Shown here piece by piece: positions 39,382-48,425 of a DNA stretch of 64,000 bases; position 1 is the first letter of the stretch; each line of letters starts with the position of its first letter. The notes under the pieces are model-generated. The model did no database searches. It was given only the letters and a program-made list of their open reading frames with translations, and had not been told where the DNA came from. Source of the stretch: Armatimonas rosea (GTDB lineage Bacteria; Armatimonadota; Armatimonadia; Armatimonadales; Armatimonadaceae); contig NZ_JACHGW010000001.1 of NCBI RefSeq assembly GCF_014202505.1, positions 1,550,001-1,614,000 of the forward strand, in the 5' to 3' direction. A program made the position numbers and the translations under genes.

Positions 39382-42051
39382 TTACAGCCGAACCCGCAGA
39401 TCGCGCACGAGCTGGCCGGTGGTGGGATGAATCACGAGAAGTCGGCCCTGGGAGTCCGCGACCGTCAGGGCATCGGGGGTGGCCCGCAGGCGCACCCGCT
39501 CCGCCCCCGAGAGCCGGAGCTGGAGCTGTGGCACCTTGAAGTCTCCCGACACACTGTGGGTTCCCAGCACCGTGATCCCCAGCGGGTCCCGGAGGGCGCT
39601 GAGGGTGAGGGCCGCGCGTCCCAGCGAGACAACGGCCAGCCCCACGGGTGTGTCGCCGGGCTCCCCAAGGACACAGCTACGCTCTAGAGCACCAACCTGG
39701 GCATGGAGAACCACCACCTCGTCGCCAAAGAGGCTCATCGCATCGGACTCCGTCTCCAGCCAGAAGAAGCTGTCGTGGAAGAAGTCAAAGGTGCCGCCTT
39801 GGAAGGGCAGGGCGCGCCGCAGCGTGGGGCGGGCGTCGTTCCAGAGGAAGGGCTCGCTGGTCTGGGTGCTCAGGCTCAGGACACTCCGATCCGGGCCAAG
39901 GGCGAGCACGGGGTCGCCGGTCTCGATCGTCGTGAGCGCCTTGGGCTGGGGGGCAAGCGTGTCGAGCTCTAATAGCTGACCGTTGCGTGCGACCCGCCAG
40001 AGGCCATCGTGGAGCTCGGATTCCCAGCAGAGCAGCGAGAGCTCGCCCCAGTCGGTGACCTTGCGGGTTCCCAGGTCCAGCACATGCACCCGCTGGCTCT
40101 CGTCGCGGTGGGCCAGCGCGACCGCGCGTGCGCCGGTCCGACCCACCACCAGCGAGGTCGCCGGGAGCTCGAAGCGGTGCAGGATGCGCCCCTCGTGGCT
40201 CAGGAGCAAGACCCCCGCCTCGCCCAGTGCCGCGAGCGTGCGGCCGTCGGGGAGCGCGGCGGCATCGACAATCGGGACAGTGCCCGTGTCGCCGCCCTCG
40301 ATACGGATCTCAAGGGGCTCGGTGCGGTCGAGAAGCGGCGTGGGGGGCTTGGGAGTGAGGCTCGGGAGGTCGGCCTCCAGCGCCGGGAGCTGCGCCTTGC
40401 GCGCCCAGGTCGTGGCGGTGTTGGCAGGAAGAGTCACGCTCCCGCTCCCATGGTCGGCGAGGGCGGCGCGTAGCCCGAGGCGCAGGAGGGGAATCAGGGC
40501 AGGGGCGGCGGGCTGGGTGGTGCGCGTGAAGAGGACCGTGAGCAGGGTCTCCCGCTCTCGGGCGGCACCGGGGGCCTTGAGCAGGGCGCGTGCCTGCTCC
40601 TGCCAGGGCTCGGACTCCTCGGCGCTCTCGCTCCAGAGCAGTAAACGGGCGAGGAGCTGCGCCCCCCCAACCCCGCCCTGTGTCGCGCCGAGCTCGGCCC
40701 AGCGCTTGGCGAGTGGGCGCGCGGCCTCAACGGGGTCCACCGTGGCCACGGCGCGGGCGTAGTCGCCCCACTCGGCGTGGAGCTGGGCCCACTCCACCCG
40801 AAGCGTCTCCGCCGCGGCGCGCTGGCTGCTCTGCTCCAGGCGGAAGATCACCTCCGAAAAGCACTGGTGGCGTCGTGCCAGAGCAATCGCGCGCTCCTTC
40901 TCGCCGGCCAGCCACCACTGCCGGACGATCAGCGACGGCGGAAGCTTGCGTGCCTCTGCCAGCTCGGCGGCGAGGCGGAGCTGGCCGTGGCGCTCGAGAA
41001 ACGAGACCGCTTCTTCGTCTTCCCGGAGAAGCTCCGCAAGAACATAGGCCGCCTCATCGAAGCGCCCCTCGTTCTTGAGCCGCTCGACCGCCTCCCGGTA
41101 GAGCTGCTTGAAGCCATCGTGCAGGCCGGTCCAGGGCAGCGACGAGTCCGCGCGGGTAGGAGTGGGGCGGATCGCCAGCTCGGAGCGGGGGCGGAGCACC
41201 CCGATGCCCGTCGGGGTGTCGTCGTTCTCGCCCGGCTTGCCCAGGGGGATGGCGTGCTGGAGGGCCTCGTGCCACTTGCCCTGCTCAAAGAGCGCTAGCA
41301 TCTGGCTGAGGTACTCGGCGTTCTGGCGGGAGATCGCCTCAAGCTGGCCGGGGGAGAAGACCTGCTCCCGGATGGTCTCCCGCAGGCGGTCGGTCGTCGC
41401 GTTGCTCACCGACTTGCGCAGGTCGCGGAACCACCAGGTCAGGCGCCAGCGTGCCTGCTCCAGCGGGGAGAGGTCCTCCAGGAGGCGGCGCGGGCGTGGT
41501 GTCTGCGACGGCGGCTGGTTGAGGGCGTCCAGCAGCGACGATTTCTGGGCCGTGAGGGCGGGGTTGGGGGTGACCAGCGGCGTGGCCTTGAGTGGGGGAA
41601 GCGCCTCAAGGATGGCGGTGGTGACCACGGGGGGCGGGGGCACGAGCGGCTGTGTCGGGATCACGGCGAGCGTCTCTAGCGCCAGCCAGTCCGCGGGCTC
41701 CACAGGGGTAAGCTCCGCGAGGGCCACGACCACGACCCGCCCGCGCTCGGCGAAGATCAGGCTCTCGGGAGGCGGGGCGAGCGCCTCGCACGCCGCCTTG
41801 GTGAGGGGCAGGCCCAGCAAGTGGCCACGCTCGCGCACCAGCGGTAGCCCCGGCGCGGTCTCTGCGATGAGCGCCTTCGGCCTGGCCAGGATCACCAGGA
41901 GCGCCCCGTCTTCCGTCTGGCTGACCCGCACGCCCGGCTCCCAGAGCGCCAGAATCCGCCGCTGTGCCTCGTCCTCGCCCAGGACGGCCGTCTCGAAGAG
42001 AAGCGCTGCGGCGGTGACCGTGCCACGGTGGACAAGCTGCTTGGGGGTCAT
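39382..42051 (-). CDS. bpX6-like / beta-propeller protein of MoxR-vWA ternary system
   Basis: An 889-residue protein. Residues 1-140 (HRGTVTAAALLFETAVLGED, RILALWEPGVRV, AETAPGLPLVRERGHLLGLPL) resemble the bpX6 domain of MoxR-vWA-beta-propeller ternary systems. Residues 200-560 are helical (LREDEEAVSFLERHGQLRLAAELAE, WLAGEKERAIALARRH), possibly TPR-like. Residues 585-889 form a beta-propeller (DGRTLAALGEAGVLLLSHEG, RVHVLDLGTRKVTDW, GRLLVIHPTTGQLV). ATG overlaps the upstream stop by ATGA. It is the last and largest gene of the four-gene operon from 45666. Family assignment is from memory of these domains and needs a profile search. Confidence 0.68.
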   Translation of the reverse strand: MTPKQLVHRGTVTAAALLFETAVLGEDEAQRRILALWEPGVRVSQTEDGALLVILARPKALIAETAPGLPLVRERGHLLGLPLTKAACEALAPPPESLIFAERGRVVVVALAELTPVEPADWLALETLAVIPTQPLVPPPPVVTTAILEALPPLKATPLVTPNPALTAQKSSLLDALNQPPSQTPRPRRLLEDLSPLEQARWRLTWWFRDLRKSVSNATTDRLRETIREQVFSPGQLEAISRQNAEYLSQMLALFEQGKWHEALQHAIPLGKPGENDDTPTGIGVLRPRSELAIRPTPTRADSSLPWTGLHDGFKQLYREAVERLKNEGRFDEAAYVLAELLREDEEAVSFLERHGQLRLAAELAEARKLPPSLIVRQWWLAGEKERAIALARRHQCFSEVIFRLEQSSQRAAAETLRVEWAQLHAEWGDYARAVATVDPVEAARPLAKRWAELGATQGGVGGAQLLARLLLWSESAEESEPWQEQARALLKAPGAARERETLLTVLFTRTTQPAAPALIPLLRLGLRAALADHGSGSVTLPANTATTWARKAQLPALEADLPSLTPKPPTPLLDRTEPLEIRIEGGDTGTVPIVDAAALPDGRTLAALGEAGVLLLSHEGRILHRFELPATSLVVGRTGARAVALAHRDESQRVHVLDLGTRKVTDWGELSLLCWESELHDGLWRVARNGQLLELDTLAPQPKALTTIETGDPVLALGPDRSVLSLSTQTSEPFLWNDARPTLRRALPFQGGTFDFFHDSFFWLETESDAMSLFGDEVVVLHAQVGALERSCVLGEPGDTPVGLAVVSLGRAALTLSALRDPLGITVLGTHSVSGDFKVPQLQLRLSGAERVRLRATPDALTVADSQGRLLVIHPTTGQLVRDLRVRL

Positions 42052-43844
42052 GTACCTGCTCCCTCCGGGGCTTCAAAATCGTCGCGCGGCCCGTGGAACT
42101 GGCAGCGGCGTGAGTTGGTCTCCAGGTCCCAGACCACCAGATCGCCGCTCTCGCGCAGGGCGGCGAGCAGAGGAAGGTCCGGCGAGAGCGCCGCGCTCAC
42201 CAGCTTCCCCCCGATTCCCGTGAGGGTCTTGGTGCCGCCCAGCCCCACCAGCCGCACGATTCGCCCCGCCTCGCTCAGGGTCACGAGCCGCACCTGACCT
42301 CCGAAGTAGGTCGCCCCCAGCACCGTGTCGTCGGGATCGAGCTCTGGGAACGCCAGGTCCTTGCTCTCCAGCGGCAGGTACCACCGCCCCTCTGAGCGCT
42401 TCACCACCACGGACTCCTTGGGTGATGGGCCCGCGAAGAGAAGTGCGCTCTCGTAGCTCTCGCCCAGCCTTGCCAGGACCGTCCCCTGGACGTCGATTAG
42501 CTGGGCGGGCTCGTAGGGGAGGAGCTTGGTCATCAGCGATGTCTGTAGGGAGAGCAAGAGAGCCGCCCGCTGGGACTTCCACGAGTAGTCGCAAATCTTA
42601 CCGTCTTCCCTTTTGGTACGGAACTCCAGGATGAGCGATGCCCCTAGCTTCTCCAGCCAGAGCATGACCTGTGGCATGTCTTGCAGCCAGAGAGTCGCTG
42701 GAAGAAGCTCCATCCCTGCCTCGTTGAGGCGGCGGAGGGACTCCTCGCTGACGGTGACCTTGCCGGTGGGGAGAGAGGAGAGGCTGCCTTTGAGCAGGCG
42801 AATCTCAAGCTGGTTGTTGACCCGCGCCACACAGAAGATCGCGTTGGGGCCGCCTCCGATAGCGCGAATCCGGCCGTAGTGCTGCTGGTAGAGCTTGGGC
42901 GGGCCGAGCGAGGCGCCGAGCTTGGTGGGGATGGGGTAGACCAGGACACCCGAATCGGCGCTATCGCGGGCACAGACCGCCTTTGCCCCCGGAAGCCAGA
43001 CCAGTGCGCCGACTGCCTGGCGGTGCGCGGCGCGTGCCTTACCGGGGCGTGCACCGACGGGGGTGAACGGGTCGCGGAGCAGGCGAATCTGGGTCTCGGG
43101 GGGCGGGAGCGCGAGCTGGAGCCTCTTCCCCGACGGCCTCAGCGTGAGCGCCAGCGCCTCGCCATCGTCGGTCTCTTCGGTGACGAGTAGCTGGACACCG
43201 CGTGTCATCGGGACATCGAGCCAGTGCGCGCCGCCTAGGAGCCAGAGCTCGTCGGGGGAGCCAAGCGCCTCTTCTGCAAGCTTGCGCCAGGCGTAGAGCT
43301 GACGCGGAGGAGCTTGCATGACCGTGCGTGCCCATAAAAACGTCCGCACCGTGGCTTCGTCGAAGCCGGTGTGCAGGGCGCTCTCGCTTGGCTCACTGTC
43401 CAGGCTCGCCCAGTGTAGGGTCGCCCCGGCGGCGCTGGCCCGCTGCGCCAGAACGATCCACGCGGCGAGCTGGGCGAGGCGCGGTGCCCCTAGCTGCTCC
43501 GGGCCGCAGTCAAAGAGAACGAGGCAGCGTCGCTCTTGCGCTTGGGCCTTGCGCTCGGGCTCCAGAAACGAGAGCTCGCCCTGGCTCAGGCGGCGCAGGA
43601 ACTCGTCGGGCGCGGTGTCCAGCAGGCCCCACTCGCTCGTGAGCAGGTGCTCCAGCTTCCCGCGCCGCGTGAGCCCCGCGTAGCCATCGGGCTCGTCGCC
43701 GCCCTTGCGCGTCTGCCCCCCGAGCGGCCCCAGCGCGGCGGCGAGGCGCACCAACAGGGGGCCCAAGGCGCTGGCGAGCACGGGATCGAGCACCGCGAGG
43801 GGGCTGGCCCAGCGGGCAAGGGCAGGCGGGAGGGGGGCACTCAC
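42048..43844 (-). CDS. Degenerate vWA / beta-propeller component of ternary system
   Basis: A 598-residue protein. Residues 105-170 (RRCLVLFDCGPEQLGAPRL, then LAAWIVLAQRASAAGATLHW) have the strand-loop-helix pattern of a von Willebrand A domain at the MIDAS position. The metal motif DxSxS reads DCGPE, so metal binding is probably lost. Residues 270-598 form a beta-propeller with a WD-like last blade (SGDLVVWDLETNSRRCQFHG). GTG 43844 is preceded by GGGGGAG at 8 nt; an in-frame GTG at 43889 would place repeat-derived sequence at the N-terminus. It overlaps the next gene by ATGA. Confidence 0.62.
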   Translation of the reverse strand: MSAPLPPALARWASPLAVLDPVLASALGPLLVRLAAALGPLGGQTRKGGDEPDGYAGLTRRGKLEHLLTSEWGLLDTAPDEFLRRLSQGELSFLEPERKAQAQERRCLVLFDCGPEQLGAPRLAQLAAWIVLAQRASAAGATLHWASLDSEPSESALHTGFDEATVRTFLWARTVMQAPPRQLYAWRKLAEEALGSPDELWLLGGAHWLDVPMTRGVQLLVTEETDDGEALALTLRPSGKRLQLALPPPETQIRLLRDPFTPVGARPGKARAAHRQAVGALVWLPGAKAVCARDSADSGVLVYPIPTKLGASLGPPKLYQQHYGRIRAIGGGPNAIFCVARVNNQLEIRLLKGSLSSLPTGKVTVSEESLRRLNEAGMELLPATLWLQDMPQVMLWLEKLGASLILEFRTKREDGKICDYSWKSQRAALLLSLQTSLMTKLLPYEPAQLIDVQGTVLARLGESYESALLFAGPSPKESVVVKRSEGRWYLPLESKDLAFPELDPDDTVLGATYFGGQVRLVTLSEAGRIVRLVGLGGTKTLTGIGGKLVSAALSPDLPLLAALRESGDLVVWDLETNSRRCQFHGPRDDFEAPEGAGT

Positions 43845-43859
43845 TTGGGTACTCCCCCC

Positions 43860-44075
43860 GACACTCCCCCCGCTTCGTTCGTTCCTCACTCCGCGACCCC
43901 CTCTCCCTCTTTTTCCACGTTCCGTGGGAGGAGAGGGAGAGGGGGTGCCGAGGGACGAGGCGGGGGAGTGTCCAGGGGGAACCCACCCCCTCTGACTCCC
44001 CCTCCCTTCCCCCCGACGAAGTCGGGTCTCAGGGGAAGGGAGGGGGCCGGGGGGAGGGATGTCTGGAGGGATGCC
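43860..44075. repeat. Palindromic elements extending into coding sequence
   Basis: TCGTTCCTC core at 43879-43887. CCCCCTCTCCCTCTTTTTCC pairs with GGAGGAGAGGGAGAGGGGG (about 43897-43948). CCCTCCCTTCCCC pairs with GGGGAAGGGAGGG around the GAA-loop hairpin CCCGAC-GAA-GTCGGG (about 43999-44046), followed by GGGGGAGGGATG as at 17326. Positions from 43886 on encode the C-terminal 58 residues of the 44536 gene. Confidence 0.7.
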
Positions 44076-44536
44076 AAAGCTCCCGCCTCCGCAAGCGAGA
44101 AGCAGCAGGTTGGCAAGAGTGCCAGCGGGGGACGTAGCTCGGGGAAGCGCCGGGTGAGGGCGGCCAAGACAAGGGCCGGGGGGAGCGTGGGGCGCTGGGT
44201 CGTGGGGAGGTAGAGGGTCGGCACGAGCGGCTCGGGGGCGAGGTAGAGGACCCCAGGGCTCCAGGGCAGCCAGTCGTGCGGGCCAAGGAGTGCGAGGAGG
44301 GGGAGTTGCCCCCTAACCCCCGCCTGGCGGGGGGAACACAAGGAATCCGATTCCTTATTGTCCCCCCGTTTGACGGGGGTTAGGGGGGGGGAAGTCACAG
44401 CGAGTAGACGCTCCGTCACGCTGGCATCCAGCCGGGCGAGGCGCTCGGTGAGCAGGGCCACATCGGGGCCGAGGGCGACCAGGCCCGCAGGGGCGAGCGG
44501 GGGCTCGCGCGTGACCCACTCCAGTGCCACGCTCAC
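43886..44536 (-). CDS. Small component of ternary system, repeat-invaded
   Basis: A 216-residue protein between the MoxR ATPase and the vWA gene, the place where small bpX-type proteins occur in such operons. Recognisable non-repeat parts are ALEWVTREPPLAPAGLVALG, PLLALLGPHDWLPWSPGVLY and PALVLAALTRRFPELRPPLA. Residues about 49-76 derive from the palindromic element at 44309-44390, and the C-terminal 58 residues derive wholly from the elements at 43886-44062 (Pro/Gly/Leu-rich). Start GTG 44536 overlaps the MoxR stop as GTGA. It could be functional with inserted loops, or decaying; the frame is open throughout. Confidence 0.55.
   Translation of the reverse strand: MSVALEWVTREPPLAPAGLVALGPDVALLTERLARLDASVTERLLAVTSPPLTPVKRGDNKESDSLCSPRQAGVRGQLPLLALLGPHDWLPWSPGVLYLAPEPLVPTLYLPTTQRPTLPPALVLAALTRRFPELRPPLALLPTCCFSLAEAGALASLQTSLPPAPSLPLRPDFVGGKGGGVRGGGFPLDTPPPRPSAPPLPLLPRNVEKEGEGVAE
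44309..44390. repeat. In-frame palindromic element with outer and inner stems
   Basis: Outer stem CCCCTAACCCCCG (44310-44322) pairs exactly with CGGGGGTTAGGGG (44374-44386). The inner AAGGAATC pairs with GATTCCTT (44340-44357). The left half recurs at 36637-36668. It lies inside the 44536 coding frame. Confidence 0.75.
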
Positions 44537-45666
44537 ACCCGTACCCACTCGATCAGCTTCTGGCGGAGCTGAGCCAGGTCGGTGGGGAGGCGCTCGGGGG
44601 CGAAGCTGGCGTCGATCTCCCGGAGCGCTCCCTCCAGGCGGAGCTTCCAAGCCGCGAGGGCCGCGGGCTCGTCGGGTGGGGCGGCGAGCAGCTTCTTAAT
44701 GCCCCCCGAGAGCCGCTGCGCCCGCGCCAGCGGCCCGAGCGATGCCTCCTCCGCGGCGTGGGGAAGCGCCGCGTTCTCTGTTGCAACCAGCAGGGGGCGC
44801 AGTGCCTCCCGCGCGAGCGCCTGCTCCTCCCACGTCGGCACGGCATAGACCAGCGGCCAGAGATCGGCGGGGGTGGCCTCGGTGCGTCCAGCCAGGGTCG
44901 CGGCGGCAGCGATCAGGTGCTGGGTGCGAACGGCCCGTCGGTCGCTGAGGGTGATGCCCGCTTGCCGTAGCGTCCGAAGCGCCTGGGCCAGCGTGGGACG
45001 TACGGAGGCCAGCTCGACCTGGCGGCACGCCGCGCTCAGCAGGTCCAGGTCGGCGAGGGAGGCCAGGGGCGCACTCGCGCTGCTCTGTCGGTTCCAGCCC
45101 TGCTCCAGCAAGTCCTCCAGGAGCGGGTCGCCCACGGGATCGAGAAAGAGCCGGACGAGAAAGCGGTCCGCAAACGCCGCCAGCGCGCCTTCGTCGGGGA
45201 GGGCGTTGGACGCCCCGATACAGAGCCGGAGCGGCACCGTAAGCTGCGTGCTTCCCCGCCGGAAGCGCCGCTCGTTGAGGATGCCCAGGAGCGTGTTGAG
45301 GATCGCGGTCGAGCCGAGGAAGATCTCATCGAGAAAGGCCAGCTCCGCCTCGGGGAGCATCCCGCGGGTCTCGGTCTCGACAATCCCCTCGCGCAGGCGT
45401 CGCAGGTCGATGGGGCCAAAGAGCTCACTGGGCTCGGTGAAGCGCCCGAGCAGGTACTCAAAGTAGCTTCCCCCGATTGTCTGTGCCATGCGCCGCGCCG
45501 CCTCTGACTTGGCGGTTCCGGGTGGCCCGATGAGCAATAAGTGCTCCCCCGCCACCGCGCAGAGCGCAATCGCCTCCGCCACTGCCTCGCGCTCGATGAG
45601 CCCGCCCGCCGCGCTCTCCACCGCCGCCCGGAGCCGGGCCGCCGCTTCTGTCCGTGCTATCTCCAT
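44533..45666 (-). CDS. MoxR/RavA-type AAA+ ATPase of ternary system
   Basis: A 377-residue AAA+ ATPase. Walker A GPPGTAKS at residues 47-54, Walker B ELAFLDEIF with D113-E114, sensor-1 Asn154 in IGASNAL, and arginine finger R168 in ADRFLVR are all present. The C-terminal 110 residues form a helical lid plus an extra helical tail. MoxR ATPases act as chaperone-like remodelers with vWA partners. First gene of a coupled operon (GTGA overlap with the next). It is leaderless by promoter position (TATACC, 7 nt) and starts only 20 bp from a divergent leaderless gene. Confidence 0.88.
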   Translation of the reverse strand: MEIARTEAAARLRAAVESAAGGLIEREAVAEAIALCAVAGEHLLLIGPPGTAKSEAARRMAQTIGGSYFEYLLGRFTEPSELFGPIDLRRLREGIVETETRGMLPEAELAFLDEIFLGSTAILNTLLGILNERRFRRGSTQLTVPLRLCIGASNALPDEGALAAFADRFLVRLFLDPVGDPLLEDLLEQGWNRQSSASAPLASLADLDLLSAACRQVELASVRPTLAQALRTLRQAGITLSDRRAVRTQHLIAAAATLAGRTEATPADLWPLVYAVPTWEEQALAREALRPLLVATENAALPHAAEEASLGPLARAQRLSGGIKKLLAAPPDEPAALAAWKLRLEGALREIDASFAPERLPTDLAQLRQKLIEWVRV

Positions 45667-45686: not shown

Positions 45687-46028
45687 GTGCGTATTACCAT
45701 TGACCTCCCTCCTGAGCAAGCCGTTCGTGTCCGTACCCTCTTGGGGGGCGAAGAAGGGGCCCGGCGCTTGCTTCTGCGTGTCCTGGGCAGCGTGCTCGAT
45801 GCCGCCGTGCCGCTCGCTCCCAGCGCCGCGCTCACCGATACCCGCCCCGAGATTCCCGCCGCCATGAGCCTGGCTGGCGACCCGATCCGCCTCCATTCCC
45901 ACGACCTGCCTGCCGATACTTTCGAGTATGAGCAAGCTGACAGTTCTGATTCAGAAGACACTCGGTCGCAAGACGGGCTCCGCCCAGGAGGCGAAGGAGC
46001 GCTTGAAGGCACTCCAGGCGCAGGCTAA
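45687..46028 (+). CDS. Small protein of unknown function
   Basis: A 113-residue protein, GTG start set by TATAAT 5 nt upstream. The first 42 residues (RITIDLPPEQAVRVRTLLGG, then RRLLLRVLGSVLDAAV) form one strand and helices, a layout loosely like small DNA-binding ribbon-helix-helix proteins but without a clear match. The C-terminal half is acidic and low complexity. It overlaps the 43-residue frame at 45928. Being divergent from the MoxR operon with a shared promoter, it is a candidate regulator of it, which is inference only. Confidence 0.5.
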   Translation: MRITIDLPPEQAVRVRTLLGGEEGARRLLLRVLGSVLDAAVPLAPSAALTDTRPEIPAAMSLAGDPIRLHSHDLPADTFEYEQADSSDSEDTRSQDGLRPGGEGALEGTPGAG

Positions 46029-46059
46029 GACGGTGCAAGAGACCAAGAAAGCCGCGTAG
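45928..46059 (+). CDS. 43-residue Lys/Ala-rich peptide
   Basis: ATG 45928 opens a 43-codon frame (begins MSKLTVLIQKTLGRKTG, ends KTVQETKKAA) with strongly helical, basic composition. GATACT (45915-45920) ends 7 nt before ATG, matching the leaderless pattern. It overlaps the 3' third of the preceding gene in another frame. No family recognised. Confidence 0.4.
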   Translation: MSKLTVLIQKTLGRKTGSAQEAKERLKALQAQAKTVQETKKAA

Positions 46060-46124
46060 CCAATCAATCCAAGCCAAATTGGCCCGGACAACGAGTCCTC
46101 GGGTAATACGTGGTTCCCGTTGGG

Positions 46125-46130
46125 TATAAT
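46125..46130 (+). promoter_or_regulatory. -10 box for leaderless fasciclin gene
   Basis: Consensus TATAAT, 6 nt before ATG 46137. Confidence 0.6.
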
Positions 46131-46136
46131 CGCCGC

Positions 46137-46796
46137 ATGGGTACCGCGTTCCGTTATCGTCTCTTGCGGGTTCTCGTTGCAAGCGCAATCGTGGGAAGTG
46201 TTGGCGGCTGGGCCTTTAAGCGCCCCATGGTTGCCTATGCCTGCGATGGCTATGGGGACTGTAGCTACTCGAACAACACTCCGAAAGCACTCCAGAAGGT
46301 CGGGGTTGGTCTGGCGGCGGGCTACACGGTGCTGGATGTCTACCGCGTCCTCAAGCATAGCACACCGTCCGCGACCGCAGCGGGGTCGATCTTAAAGCGC
46401 ACCCAGAGCCTGCCTTCAGAGTTTAGTGAAGTCGCAAAGCTGCTGAAGAATGCGGCACCTGCCGAAAACTACGACACCGATGGCCCCTACACCGTGCTCT
46501 GGCCGACCGATACGGCGCTACGAGAGGCACTAGGGGCAGAGCGCGTTGCGTTTTTACAGAGCCCTGCAGGTCAGAGCGCGGCGCAGGCACTGCTGAAACA
46601 GTGGACCCTCCCCTGGCGCTACACCCTCGCGCAGCTCCGCACCCTCAAGACCGTGCGCAACCTCGCGGGGGAGCCGCTGTCGGTTACCCTAGACGGCGAT
46701 ACCCTGCGGGTTGGGGGGGCAACCCTCGCCCTGAGTGAGTACCCCACAAGCAATGGCTGGATCCTGCCCGTGAGCAGACTGGTCGCGGAAGAGTAA
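46137..46796 (+). CDS. Exported fasciclin (FAS1) domain protein
   Basis: A 219-residue protein with a signal peptide or N-terminal anchor (LLRVLVASAIVGSVGGW). Residues 90-215 form a FAS1 adhesion domain (FSEVAKLLKNAAPAENYDTDGPYTVLWPTDTAL, then LRTLKTVRNLAGEPLSVTLDGD). The Cys pair after the leader (ACDGYGDCSY) may form a disulfide. FAS1 domains usually mediate surface adhesion. Its stop overlaps the next ATG as TAATG, heading a probable operon through 48260 or beyond. ATG 46137 is chosen because TATAAT lies 6 nt upstream. Confidence 0.82.
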   Translation: MGTAFRYRLLRVLVASAIVGSVGGWAFKRPMVAYACDGYGDCSYSNNTPKALQKVGVGLAAGYTVLDVYRVLKHSTPSATAAGSILKRTQSLPSEFSEVAKLLKNAAPAENYDTDGPYTVLWPTDTALREALGAERVAFLQSPAGQSAAQALLKQWTLPWRYTLAQLRTLKTVRNLAGEPLSVTLDGDTLRVGGATLALSEYPTSNGWILPVSRLVAEE

Positions 46797-47008
46797 TGAT
46801 GGATAAGACACAGAAACTGATCTTGGGAGTGGCGGCCGCCGCCGCTGCGCTCGCTGTCACGGCGGGCTGTGACAACCGGCGCGACGAGGAAGACGGGGGG
46901 GGCACGGGGGTCTACTCCAGCGGAGGAAGTAGCGGCGGCGCGCGCGTGTTCTCGTCGGGCGGCGGTAGCTTCGGCGGAGGGCGTGGGGCGTTCTCGGCCG
47001 GTGGCTAG
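46796..47008 (+). CDS. Small Gly/Ser-rich lipoprotein (YgiB-like in style)
   Basis: A 70-residue protein with an N-terminal helix ending AALAVTAGC, a plausible lipobox, followed by DNRRDEEDGG and a Gly/Ser/Phe-rich tail (SSGGGSFGGGRGAFSAGG). E. coli YgiB/YjfM also join a lipobox region to a Gly/Ser-rich tail and sit beside an ATP-grasp gene like the one that follows here. Homology to YgiB is not proven. Starts at a TAATG overlap and overlaps the next gene by 8 nt. Confidence 0.65.
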   Translation: MMDKTQKLILGVAAAAAALAVTAGCDNRRDEEDGGGTGVYSSGGSSGGARVFSSGGGSFGGGRGAFSAGG

Positions 47009-48260
47009 CCCGACAACCTACACCGAACAGCGCCGCGCCTTCTTCGCCCGCTTCCCAGACTTCTGGAGCGATGTCGAGGGGGAGGAGTATGCTCTGCTCC
47101 AGACCCACACGCTCCGCCTCGACGACCATGCAGCGCTCCAGCAGGCCGCCCGGGCGATCTACCCGATCTTTGTCCGAACGGCGGCTCTGGTACGCACCCT
47201 CGACGATGCGACACTCTTGCAGCTTGGGCTCCCGCAGGAGACCCTCGCCGTGGTGCGCCAAGTAACTCCGGGAGTCAGTGATGTCCCCTTTGGGCGGCTC
47301 GATCTGATCCTAGGCCCCGACGGTCACTTCAAGCTGATTGAGTTCAACACCGATACCCCCGCCTTTACTCGGGAGTGCTTCGAGATCAATGGCAAGGTCT
47401 GCGCTCACTTCGGGCTGCCCGACCCCAATGCGGGCGAGACCGAGCGTCTGCTGGCGGTTGTCAGCCGGACACTCGGGGCGAGCCTGGCACACCTGCAAAC
47501 CCACGAGGCGCGCCCGCTGGTTGTGGGCTCGTCGCTGGACGGCCATGTCGAGGACTGGGGGACGACCGAGTTTATCTGCGAGCTCCTCCGCAAGGTTCCC
47601 GGTATCGATGTCCGCCACATCCCCATCAGCCAGCTCGGGCTCACCGACGATGCGCTGGTAGACTCTGCCGACGGGCGGCCTATCGCGCTGCTCTACCGAC
47701 TCTACCCGCTGGAGTGGTTTGTGCAGGACCGCGACGCGCAGGGCAATGCCCCCGGCGCCCAGCTCCTCGCGCTGGTGGAGCGGCGCTGTGTCGCGCTTCT
47801 CAACCCGCCCGGTGCCTTTCTCTGGCAGAGCAAGGCGCTCCAAGCCCTGATCTGGGGCCTCTACGAGCAGGGGAGCTTCTTCGACTCCGCCGAGCGGGAG
47901 ACCATCGCGACCTACTTCCTACCGACCTACCTCGACCCCGCCTTTGCCGGAGAGCGGCATATCGTCAAGCCGTTCTACGGCCGCGAGGGGCACTCGGTGC
48001 GGCTACACGGCCCGGACGGCGCGGTGGAGACTGCGGGGGGCCTCGGCCTCTACGACGACCAGCCGATGCTCTGGCAGAAGTATGTCCCGATGCCCACGGT
48101 GGCGGTCACCACGGAGGCGGGGGAGAAGACCCTCTCGCTCCTGCACTCGATCTTTGTCCTCGACGGTGAGCCGAGCGCGGTGGGCCTGCGGGTGAGTGGG
48201 CCGGTCACCGACGACGACTCGCTTTTTCTGCCGGTTGCATTGGGCACGGAATTGGGGTAA
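47001..48260 (+). CDS. Glutathionylspermidine synthase-like ATP-grasp protein
   Basis: A 419-residue protein of the GspS C-terminal/YgiC/YjfC ATP-grasp family. FGRLDLILGPDGHFKLIEFNTDTPA at about residues 95-120 matches the family's IEYNADTP segment, and IVKPFYGREGHSVRLH and LWQKYVPMP supply ATP- and Mg-binding residues of the grasp fold. The amidase half of true GspS is absent. It should ligate an amine to a carboxylate using ATP, but no substrate is known for YgiC-type proteins. GTG 47001 overlaps the lipoprotein gene; the longer frame to 46869 would run through that gene. Confidence 0.85.
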   Translation: MASPTTYTEQRRAFFARFPDFWSDVEGEEYALLQTHTLRLDDHAALQQAARAIYPIFVRTAALVRTLDDATLLQLGLPQETLAVVRQVTPGVSDVPFGRLDLILGPDGHFKLIEFNTDTPAFTRECFEINGKVCAHFGLPDPNAGETERLLAVVSRTLGASLAHLQTHEARPLVVGSSLDGHVEDWGTTEFICELLRKVPGIDVRHIPISQLGLTDDALVDSADGRPIALLYRLYPLEWFVQDRDAQGNAPGAQLLALVERRCVALLNPPGAFLWQSKALQALIWGLYEQGSFFDSAERETIATYFLPTYLDPAFAGERHIVKPFYGREGHSVRLHGPDGAVETAGGLGLYDDQPMLWQKYVPMPTVAVTTEAGEKTLSLLHSIFVLDGEPSAVGLRVSGPVTDDDSLFLPVALGTELG

Positions 48261-48269
48261 GACAGGTCT

Positions 48270-48425
48270 ATGAAACGATCCGCTGTCTGGTTTCTCCTGC
48301 TGCTTGCAGCGGCAGGCTGTGGCGCGGGTGGGGTCTCCCAGCTTCCCAAGGATCCTGGCCCCATCACCATCCGCTCAACCCCCACTCCCTACAAGGGCAT
48401 CGGAGTGCCGCCCCCGCCTCCGTAA
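48270..48425 (+). CDS. 51-residue lipoprotein
   Basis: ATG 48270, 9 nt after the preceding stop. The product has a basic start, a Leu-rich helix and lipobox LLLAAAGC (Cys17), then a short Pro-rich mature part ending GIGVPPPPP. It is short but the signal is convincing. Probably part of the operon from 46137. Confidence 0.65.
   Translation: MKRSAVWFLLLLAAAGCGAGGVSQLPKDPGPITIRSTPTPYKGIGVPPPPP

What the first reader, a model, noticed from the sequence alone, without database searches (positions are those of the whole stretch)
39382..45666. Four-gene MoxR / degenerate vWA / beta-propeller (bpX-type) ternary system
Seen: an intact MoxR-type AAA+ ATPase, a 216-residue protein, a protein with a vWA-like strand plus propeller, and an 889-residue propeller protein, joined by GTGA and ATGA overlaps except for one 41-nt gap. 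Known: MoxR-vWA-beta-propeller ternary systems with bpX domains were predicted computationally to be NTP-dependent conflict or defence systems and are not experimentally understood. Inference: this is a member in which the vWA MIDAS motif has become DCGPE, so it would work without metal-dependent adhesion, and in which both non-ATPase components carry their own propeller.
Basis: partly seen in the sequence, partly recalled or inferred. Interest (0 to 1): 0.75.

Follow-up and report, generated by a model that had tools for sequence, protein, structure and literature searches.

The report
Four-gene MoxR, vWA-like, double-propeller operon
The window carries an intact, strictly ordered four-gene operon for a predicted ATP-driven protein-remodelling machine of a known but experimentally untested kind; its vWA-like part has a conserved, apparently metal-free loop where such domains normally bind metal, and this is shared by the whole family rather than peculiar to this genome.

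Summary
Pfam assigns bpMoxR (E 2e-82), bpX5 (3e-19) and bpX6 (5e-23) to three of the four proteins. The fourth has no Pfam family, but AlphaFold2, Foldseek and VIA-align show a vWA-type fold (nearest: midasin/Rea1, NorD, Rpn10, integrin I domains) followed by a WD40-like propeller. It is a bona fide member of the 'beta-propeller' subsystem of Kaur et al. 2020. New here: (i) the order moxR-bpX5-vWA/propeller-bpX6 is kept in 30 of 30 relatives with enough sequence, in at least five phyla, so this branch is four-component rather than ternary; (ii) the altered MIDAS is not a change in this member: 35 of 35 sequences carry a conserved D-x-G loop (consensus FDxGPxQxGxxR) in place of DxSxS and lack the strand-4 Asp; (iii) the third protein has probable membrane segments in many relatives, none here, and an inserted PP2C phosphatase in two Myxococcales. 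No conserved effector gene exists, one of about 22 neighbourhoods clearly adjoins a known defence gene, and no phage or viral contig carries it. Defence is plausible but unproven. Verdict: new member of a known, unsolved kind.

The parts
44533..45666 (-). moxR: AAA+ ATPase of the bpMoxR family (377 aa)
   Evidence: Pfam PF20030 E 2.2e-82, AAA_5, AAA_lid_8; nearest solved relatives RavA E 3e-49; P-loop GPPGTAKS and all catalytic motifs conserved in 31 sequences
43886..44536 (-). bpX5 protein (216 aa, GTG start overlapping the moxR stop)
   Evidence: Pfam PF19921 E 2.6e-19 in two stretches; junction
44309..44391 (-). in-frame dispersed palindromic repeat inside bpX5
   Evidence: 39-nt arms, 82% complementary; about 45 places in the genome (77 matches counting both strands); an insert at the same place, in frame, in the sister species and absent from other bpX5 proteins
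43890..44056 (-). second dispersed repeat, which forms the C-terminal ~55 codons of bpX5
   Evidence: 57 matches in the genome, best other copy 95% identical; not present in any other bpX5 protein compared
42048..43844 (-). vWA-like / beta-propeller protein (598 aa, GTG start; the upstream ORF extension to 43889 is not conserved)
   Evidence: relatives start at this point; no Pfam family; AF2 model pLDDT 69; propeller matches Foldseek E 7e-8
43065..43844 (-). N-terminal helices plus vWA-type Rossmannoid domain (residues 1-260)
   Evidence: AF2 on 35 sequences, pLDDT 86.7, pTM 0.78; VIA-align top 50 dominated by vWA/I-type domains, best Rea1 MIDAS Z 8.0, rmsd 4.3, 169 residues
43479..43511 (-). 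rebuilt MIDAS loop D112-x-G-P-x-Q-x-G-x-x-R122
   Evidence: D112, G114, G119, R122 invariant in 35/35, Q117 33/35, P115 30/35
42081..43052 (-). C-terminal beta-propeller of the vWA protein (residues 265-588)
   Evidence: strand pattern in AF2 model; Foldseek to G-beta and other WD40 propellers
39382..42051 (-). third component: bpX6 protein (889 aa)
   Evidence: Pfam PF19922 E 5e-23; bpX6 found in all 23 members scanned
41614..42042 (-). bpX6 domain (residues 4-146)
   Evidence: Pfam match range
40372..41325 (-). conserved region (residues ~243-560), taken to be the TPR/alpha-solenoid of the published description
   Evidence: many invariant positions; TPR assignment rests on the paper, no Pfam TPR match
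39385..40284 (-). probable C-terminal propeller of the third component (residues ~590-889)
   Evidence: profile hit to LST8 WD40 propeller E 0.023; inference from paper

Best explanation
A four-protein ATP-driven remodelling machine of the MoxR/vWA type. SHOWN: a AAA+ MoxR with every catalytic motif; a partner predicted to have a vWA-type fold plus propeller; two companions (bpX5 and bpX6 proteins) that are always present; all four encoded in one invariant order. INFERRED: MoxR forms a ring and docks the vWA protein through the vWA domain and its highly conserved N-terminal helices (as in midasin/Rea1, NorQ-NorD and RavA-ViaA). Instead of gripping a substrate acid through a metal at MIDAS, the vWA face uses the fixed DxGPxQxGxxR loop, probably a metal-free docking surface. 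Client or partner recognition is carried by the propellers. ATP hydrolysis strips, assembles or activates the third component, a bpX6-solenoid-propeller chassis that looks membrane-anchored in many bacteria, carries a phosphatase domain (PP2C) in two Myxococcales, and is soluble here. Its biological role is most likely an accessory stress or conflict response, not core metabolism.
For: Pfam families; catalytic motifs in 31 MoxRs; RavA as nearest solved structures; vWA fold by AF2 and VIA-align, with two other MoxR-clade partners, Rea1 MIDAS and NorD, aligned over helices plus domain (from residue 17 or 23 to 246); propeller; of 15 invariant columns in the 270-residue domain, 8 fall in helices 61-93 (hypergeometric p 8e-5) and 4 in loop 112-122 (p 0.002); order kept in 30/30 loci; patchy, one copy per genome, 10 of 291 genomes of the phylum; accessory region in P. 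syringae clade 2b-a with ravA-bpX5-'6ND4'-bpX6 (PMC9677677); hydrophobic segments; PP2C insert.
Against: No experiment on any member was found. Genome context gives little support for defence. Canonical vWA profile similarity was not detectable, so homology rests on a predicted fold at Z about 8, which the tool itself calls middling. In the sister species the operon sits in a shared chromosomal place, not in an obvious island. Oligomer and complex were not modelled; absence of metal is inferred from missing ligands only.
Confidence: 0.55

Rival explanations
1. Anti-invader (phage or rival bacterium) conflict system as proposed by Kaur et al.: MoxR/vWA set a threshold and the third component is the effector.
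For: Published prediction for this class; patchy distribution; accessory region in P. syringae; a MoxR/VWF-containing cluster, Arc2, protects P. aeruginosa against a rival bacterium's toxin (PMC8926400; homology to this operon not tested); DISARM DrmD immediately downstream in one relative.
Against: No conventional effector in the window; about 1 of 22 neighbourhoods has a clear defence gene; no hits in phages or IMG/VR; PADLOC has no model for it.
Confidence: 0.35
2. Dedicated maturation/assembly chaperone (like NorQD, CbbQO or RavA-ViaA) for a particular cellular complex, with no conflict role.
For: Nearest structural and sequence relatives (RavA, NorD, Rea1) are maturation or remodelling machines; strong purifying selection and a shared chromosomal place in the genus.
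Against: No co-conserved client gene next to the operon; presence in only 10/291 genomes of the phylum is unusual for a housekeeping maturation factor.
Confidence: 0.25
3. Decaying system in this genome: repeat insertions in bpX5 and loss of MIDAS and membrane segments mean it no longer works.
For: Two dispersed repeats sit inside the bpX5 gene and replace its C terminus; no hydrophobic segment in the third component.
Against: All four frames are open, dN/dS is 0.10-0.25, and the internal insert stayed in frame in two species; MIDAS change and absence of membrane segments are shared with relatives.
Confidence: 0.07

Closest known systems
[quoted passage not shown] 2020, PMC7159879); Pfam bpMoxR PF20030, bpX5 PF19921, bpX6 PF19922
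   Same: bpMoxR ATPase with the GXXXTAKS P-loop, vWA fused to a C-terminal propeller, third component with a distinctive N-terminal domain, no conventional effector, divergent vWA
   Different: four genes in fixed order rather than three; vWA motif DxGPxQxGxxR; no membrane segment in the third protein; in Armatimonadota, which the paper's main text does not mention
ravA - bpX5 - '6ND4' - bpX6 cluster, Pseudomonas syringae clade 2b-a, RGP_32 (PMC9677677)
   Same: apparently the same four-gene operon, listed in a table of clade-unique orthologous groups
   Different: listed only, not analysed in the passage read; different phylum; most Pseudomonas relatives examined here have hydrophobic segments in the bpX6 protein
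RavA-ViaA
   Same: closest solved MoxR by sequence (E 3e-49, residues 16-272), MoxR/vWA pairing
   Different: RavA equivalog model far below cutoff (165 vs 681 bits); match ends at residue ~272; no propellers or bpX proteins in that pair (own knowledge)
NorQ-NorD and midasin/Rea1 MIDAS
   Same: nearest predicted-fold matches to the vWA domain including N-terminal helices
   Different: midasin-type vWA domains keep a metal-binding MIDAS (own knowledge); ours lacks its ligands
Arc2 (PA4317-4323) of P. aeruginosa (PMC8926400)
   Same: MoxR-like ATPase plus VWF-domain protein in one cluster, with a tested protective role
   Different: seven genes; homology to this operon not tested

Membership tests
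Kaur subsystem 4 (beta-propeller MoxR-vWA systems) | MoxR of the bpMoxR family | tested here: met
   PF20030 275.5 bits against cutoff 27
Kaur subsystem 4 (beta-propeller MoxR-vWA systems) | P-loop GXXXTAKS (frequent feature) | tested here: met
   GPPGTAKS; T in 30/31 and A in 30/31 sequences
Kaur subsystem 4 (beta-propeller MoxR-vWA systems) | vWA domain with a beta-propeller C-terminal to it | tested here: met
   AF2 models and Foldseek/VIA-align; both parts by predicted structure, not by sequence profile
Kaur subsystem 4 (beta-propeller MoxR-vWA systems) | third component with bpX-type N-terminal domain | tested here: met
   bpX6 PF19922 82 bits against cutoff 27; 23/23 members
Kaur subsystem 4 (beta-propeller MoxR-vWA systems) | TPR and propeller in the C-terminal part of the third component (typical) | tested here: inconclusive
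   only a weak LST8 WD40 profile hit, E 0.023; no Pfam TPR
Kaur subsystem 4 (beta-propeller MoxR-vWA systems) | membrane-spanning segment in the third component (described in the paper, not strictly defining) | tested here: not met
   no 19-residue stretch with mean hydropathy of 1.7 or more in the window's protein; present in many relatives
Kaur subsystem 4 (beta-propeller MoxR-vWA systems) | role in biological conflict | not testable with these tools
   needs phage or competition assays
metal-binding vWA (MIDAS) domain | vWA-type Rossmannoid fold | tested here: met
   VIA-align rows are nearly all vWA/I-type domains, Z 8.0 to 6.5; each Z is middling, the list is consistent
metal-binding vWA (MIDAS) domain | DxSxS after strand 1 | tested here: not met
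   DxG in 35/35
metal-binding vWA (MIDAS) domain | Asp after strand 4 | tested here: not met
   strand 4 ends W-[LIVA]-[VIL]-[GA] with no conserved Asp after it
RavA (NCBIfam PRK13531 equivalog) | score over the equivalog cutoff | tested here: not met
   164.9 bits vs 681
PADLOC-described defence systems | match to a system model | tested here: not met
   only weak generic AAA matches

The most novel reading that the evidence does not exclude
The bpX5/bpX6 branch is an obligate four-component MoxR machine, distinct from the ternary systems it was filed under, whose vWA partner exchanged metal-dependent substrate capture for a conserved metal-free DxGPxQxGxxR docking loop before the branch spread across phyla, and whose third component is a chassis that accepts membrane anchors or a PP2C phosphatase.
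Probability: 0.4. Interest if true: 0.6.

Novelty: new member of a known kind. Interest (0 to 1): 0.42.

Why it matters
No experimental test of any beta-propeller MoxR-vWA system was found. This work reduces the problem to four always-linked genes, names one conserved loop to mutate, shows that environmental Pseudomonas and Gilliamella carry the same operon, and gives a first catalytic clue (PP2C in the third component of two Myxococcales). If the loop is metal-free, a vWA co-chaperone has kept its place beside an AAA+ ring after losing the feature thought to define how such partners grip substrates.

Tried and rejected
hhalign of the 35-sequence vWA-like alignment against canonical vWA alignments from the same phylum gave no match, and HMMER against PDB sequences none: sequence alone does not show vWA homology; the predicted fold does. 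Pfam on 35 vWA-like domains gave nothing. hhalign of the vWA/propeller protein against the bpX6 protein did not align their propellers. Searched for a conserved fifth gene among 342 flanking ORFs: none beyond synteny within Gilliamella and small scattered groups. Searched phages, plasmids and IMG/VR: none in phages or viral contigs, one Embleya record of 5.7 Mb among plasmids. Rejected the idea that the MIDAS change marks decay here, because it is shared by all relatives compared.
Full report
WHAT IS THERE. In order of transcription they are a 377-aa MoxR ATPase, a 216-aa protein, a 598-aa protein starting at GTG 43844 (the longer 613-aa ORF start is not conserved), and an 889-aa protein. Pfam gives bpMoxR (2e-82), bpX5 (3e-19), no family, and bpX6 (5e-23) respectively. 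The MoxR keeps Walker A (GPPGTAKS), Walker B, sensor 1, arginine finger and sensor 2, conserved through 31 sequences. Its nearest solved relatives are RavA structures, aligned only to about residue 272, and it is far below the RavA equivalog cutoff.

SAME OPERON ELSEWHERE. The window's genome belongs to Armatimonadota, inferred from the record titles of its close relatives. A scan of GTDB genomes with the vWA-like protein returned 34 loci from Armatimonadota, Myxococcota, Acidobacteriota, Actinomycetota and Pseudomonadota, the last including Pseudomonas, Lysobacteraceae, Parachitinimonas and Gilliamella. Counting each organism once and leaving aside four loci cut off by contig ends (L030, L035, L038, L057), all 30 have the four genes in the same order and strand. 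The one interruption noticed is an extra gene between vWA and bpX6 in Minicystis rosea. Because the loci were found through one protein only, the linkage of the other three is an independent result. A paper on P. syringae lists ravA - bpX5 - '6ND4' - bpX6 in a region of genome plasticity, apparently the same cluster (PMC9677677). In the window's phylum only 10 of 291 genomes carry bpX6, one copy each. The MoxR tree places the Pseudomonadota sequences together (100/100), while Armatimonadota and Myxococcota branches are not separated; transfer and loss are both possible.

THE vWA-LIKE DOMAIN. Sequence methods do not connect it to vWA: no Pfam match in 35 members, no hhalign match to canonical vWA alignments, no PDB sequence hit. 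The AF2 model built on 35 sequences is good (pLDDT 86.7, pTM 0.78). Foldseek's top PDB matches include NorD, MDN1 MIDAS, CLCA1, integrin and Rpn10 vWA domains, though none with E under 0.001. In VIA-align, vWA or I-type domains fill nearly the whole list, led by Rea1 MIDAS at Z 8.0 (rmsd 4.3, 169 residues, model 17-246). Z about 8 is middling by the tool's own note, but the consistency of the list, and the inclusion of the N-terminal helices in the Rea1 and NorD alignments (both partners of MoxR-clade ATPases), make the assignment credible. The loop after strand 1 has the consensus F-D-x-G-P-x-Q-x-G-x-x-R: D112, G114, G119 and R122 are invariant in 35/35, Q117 in 33, F111 in 32, P115 in 30. 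Strand 4 ends W-x-x-G with no conserved Asp. So the serines and the second Asp of MIDAS are gone, but the loop is among the most conserved parts of the domain (4 of 15 invariant columns in 11 of 270 positions, p 0.002; helices 61-93 hold 8, p 8e-5). This is a rebuilt site, not a decayed one, and it predates the spread of the branch. Kaur et al. already noted that some vWA domains in these systems lack one or both aspartates and may recognise peptides differently.

PROPELLERS AND THIRD COMPONENT. The C-terminal half of the 598-aa protein is a WD40-like propeller (E 7e-8 to G-beta). For the 889-aa protein only a weak LST8 propeller profile hit supports a propeller (E 0.023); the solenoid is inferred from the paper. 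Between bpX6 and the solenoid, all the Pseudomonas and Gilliamella proteins and the two of one Armatimonadota family (G036, G060) carry hydrophobic segments; the window's protein and its nearer relatives do not. In two Myxococcales, L044 and L047, sisters in the MoxR tree, a ~290-residue PP2C phosphatase domain is inserted between solenoid and propeller (E 4e-12 and 1e-10). The paper's main text describes these systems as lacking conventional effector modules and mentions PP2C only in another system.

CONTEXT AND ROLE. No fifth gene is conserved. Among 73 flanking proteins from about 22 loci, PADLOC matches come from a few proteins only, the clear case being DISARM DrmD directly downstream in L068; other neighbours look like general metabolism and transport. 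No match in phages or viral contigs. In the sister species the operon lies in the same chromosomal neighbourhood, clearly so on the side of the PolX and thioesterase genes, and all four genes are under purifying selection (dN/dS 0.10-0.25). The data fit an accessory, ATP-driven remodelling machine; they neither prove nor exclude defence.

REPEATS IN bpX5. The bpX5 gene contains an 83-nt palindromic element found in about 45 places in the genome, in frame, with an equivalent insert in the sister species, and its last ~55 codons are another dispersed repeat. The bpX5 domain around them is still recognisable and under purifying selection.

MECHANISM, with steps marked. Shown: ATPase with intact motifs, predicted vWA-type fold with a conserved non-MIDAS loop, one clear propeller, invariant four-gene linkage. 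Inferred: ring formation, docking through helices 61-93 and the loop, absence of metal, substrate recognition through propellers, remodelling of the bpX6 protein. Not addressed: client, trigger and phenotype.

VERDICT. A genuine, well-conserved member of a known but untested class.

Noticed in passing
L044 13495-14442; L047 13519-14466: PP2C protein phosphatase domain inserted between solenoid and propeller of the bpX6 protein in two Myxococcales; by my reading the PP2C metal-binding motifs (ED, DG/DA, SDG, DN) are kept, so it may be active.
   Followed up: partly
window 44309-44391 and 43890-44056: Two dispersed genome repeats lie in frame inside the bpX5 gene, one internal and one making up the C terminus; each has roughly 40-45 places in the genome.
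   Followed up: partly
L058 11868-12701: Minicystis rosea has an extra 277-aa gene, LmbE/PIG-L-like by its AHPDD motif (my reading, not searched), between the vWA and bpX6 genes of the operon.
   Followed up: no
L068 14677-18168: DISARM DrmD-like helicase directly downstream of the operon in an uncultured delta-proteobacterium, with an MmeI_N-containing protein further downstream.
   Followed up: partly
L029, L031, L048-L051, L055, L056, L059, L061, L064, L065, L069: Hydrophobic, probably membrane-spanning, segments between bpX6 domain and solenoid in many relatives, absent in the window's protein.
   Followed up: partly
window 46110-46796 and 46869-48260: Fasciclin-domain protein and GSP_synth-family protein on the plus strand upstream of the operon; in the sister species the matched upstream sequence skips from 45727 to 48311, so these two genes are probably absent or elsewhere there.
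   Followed up: no
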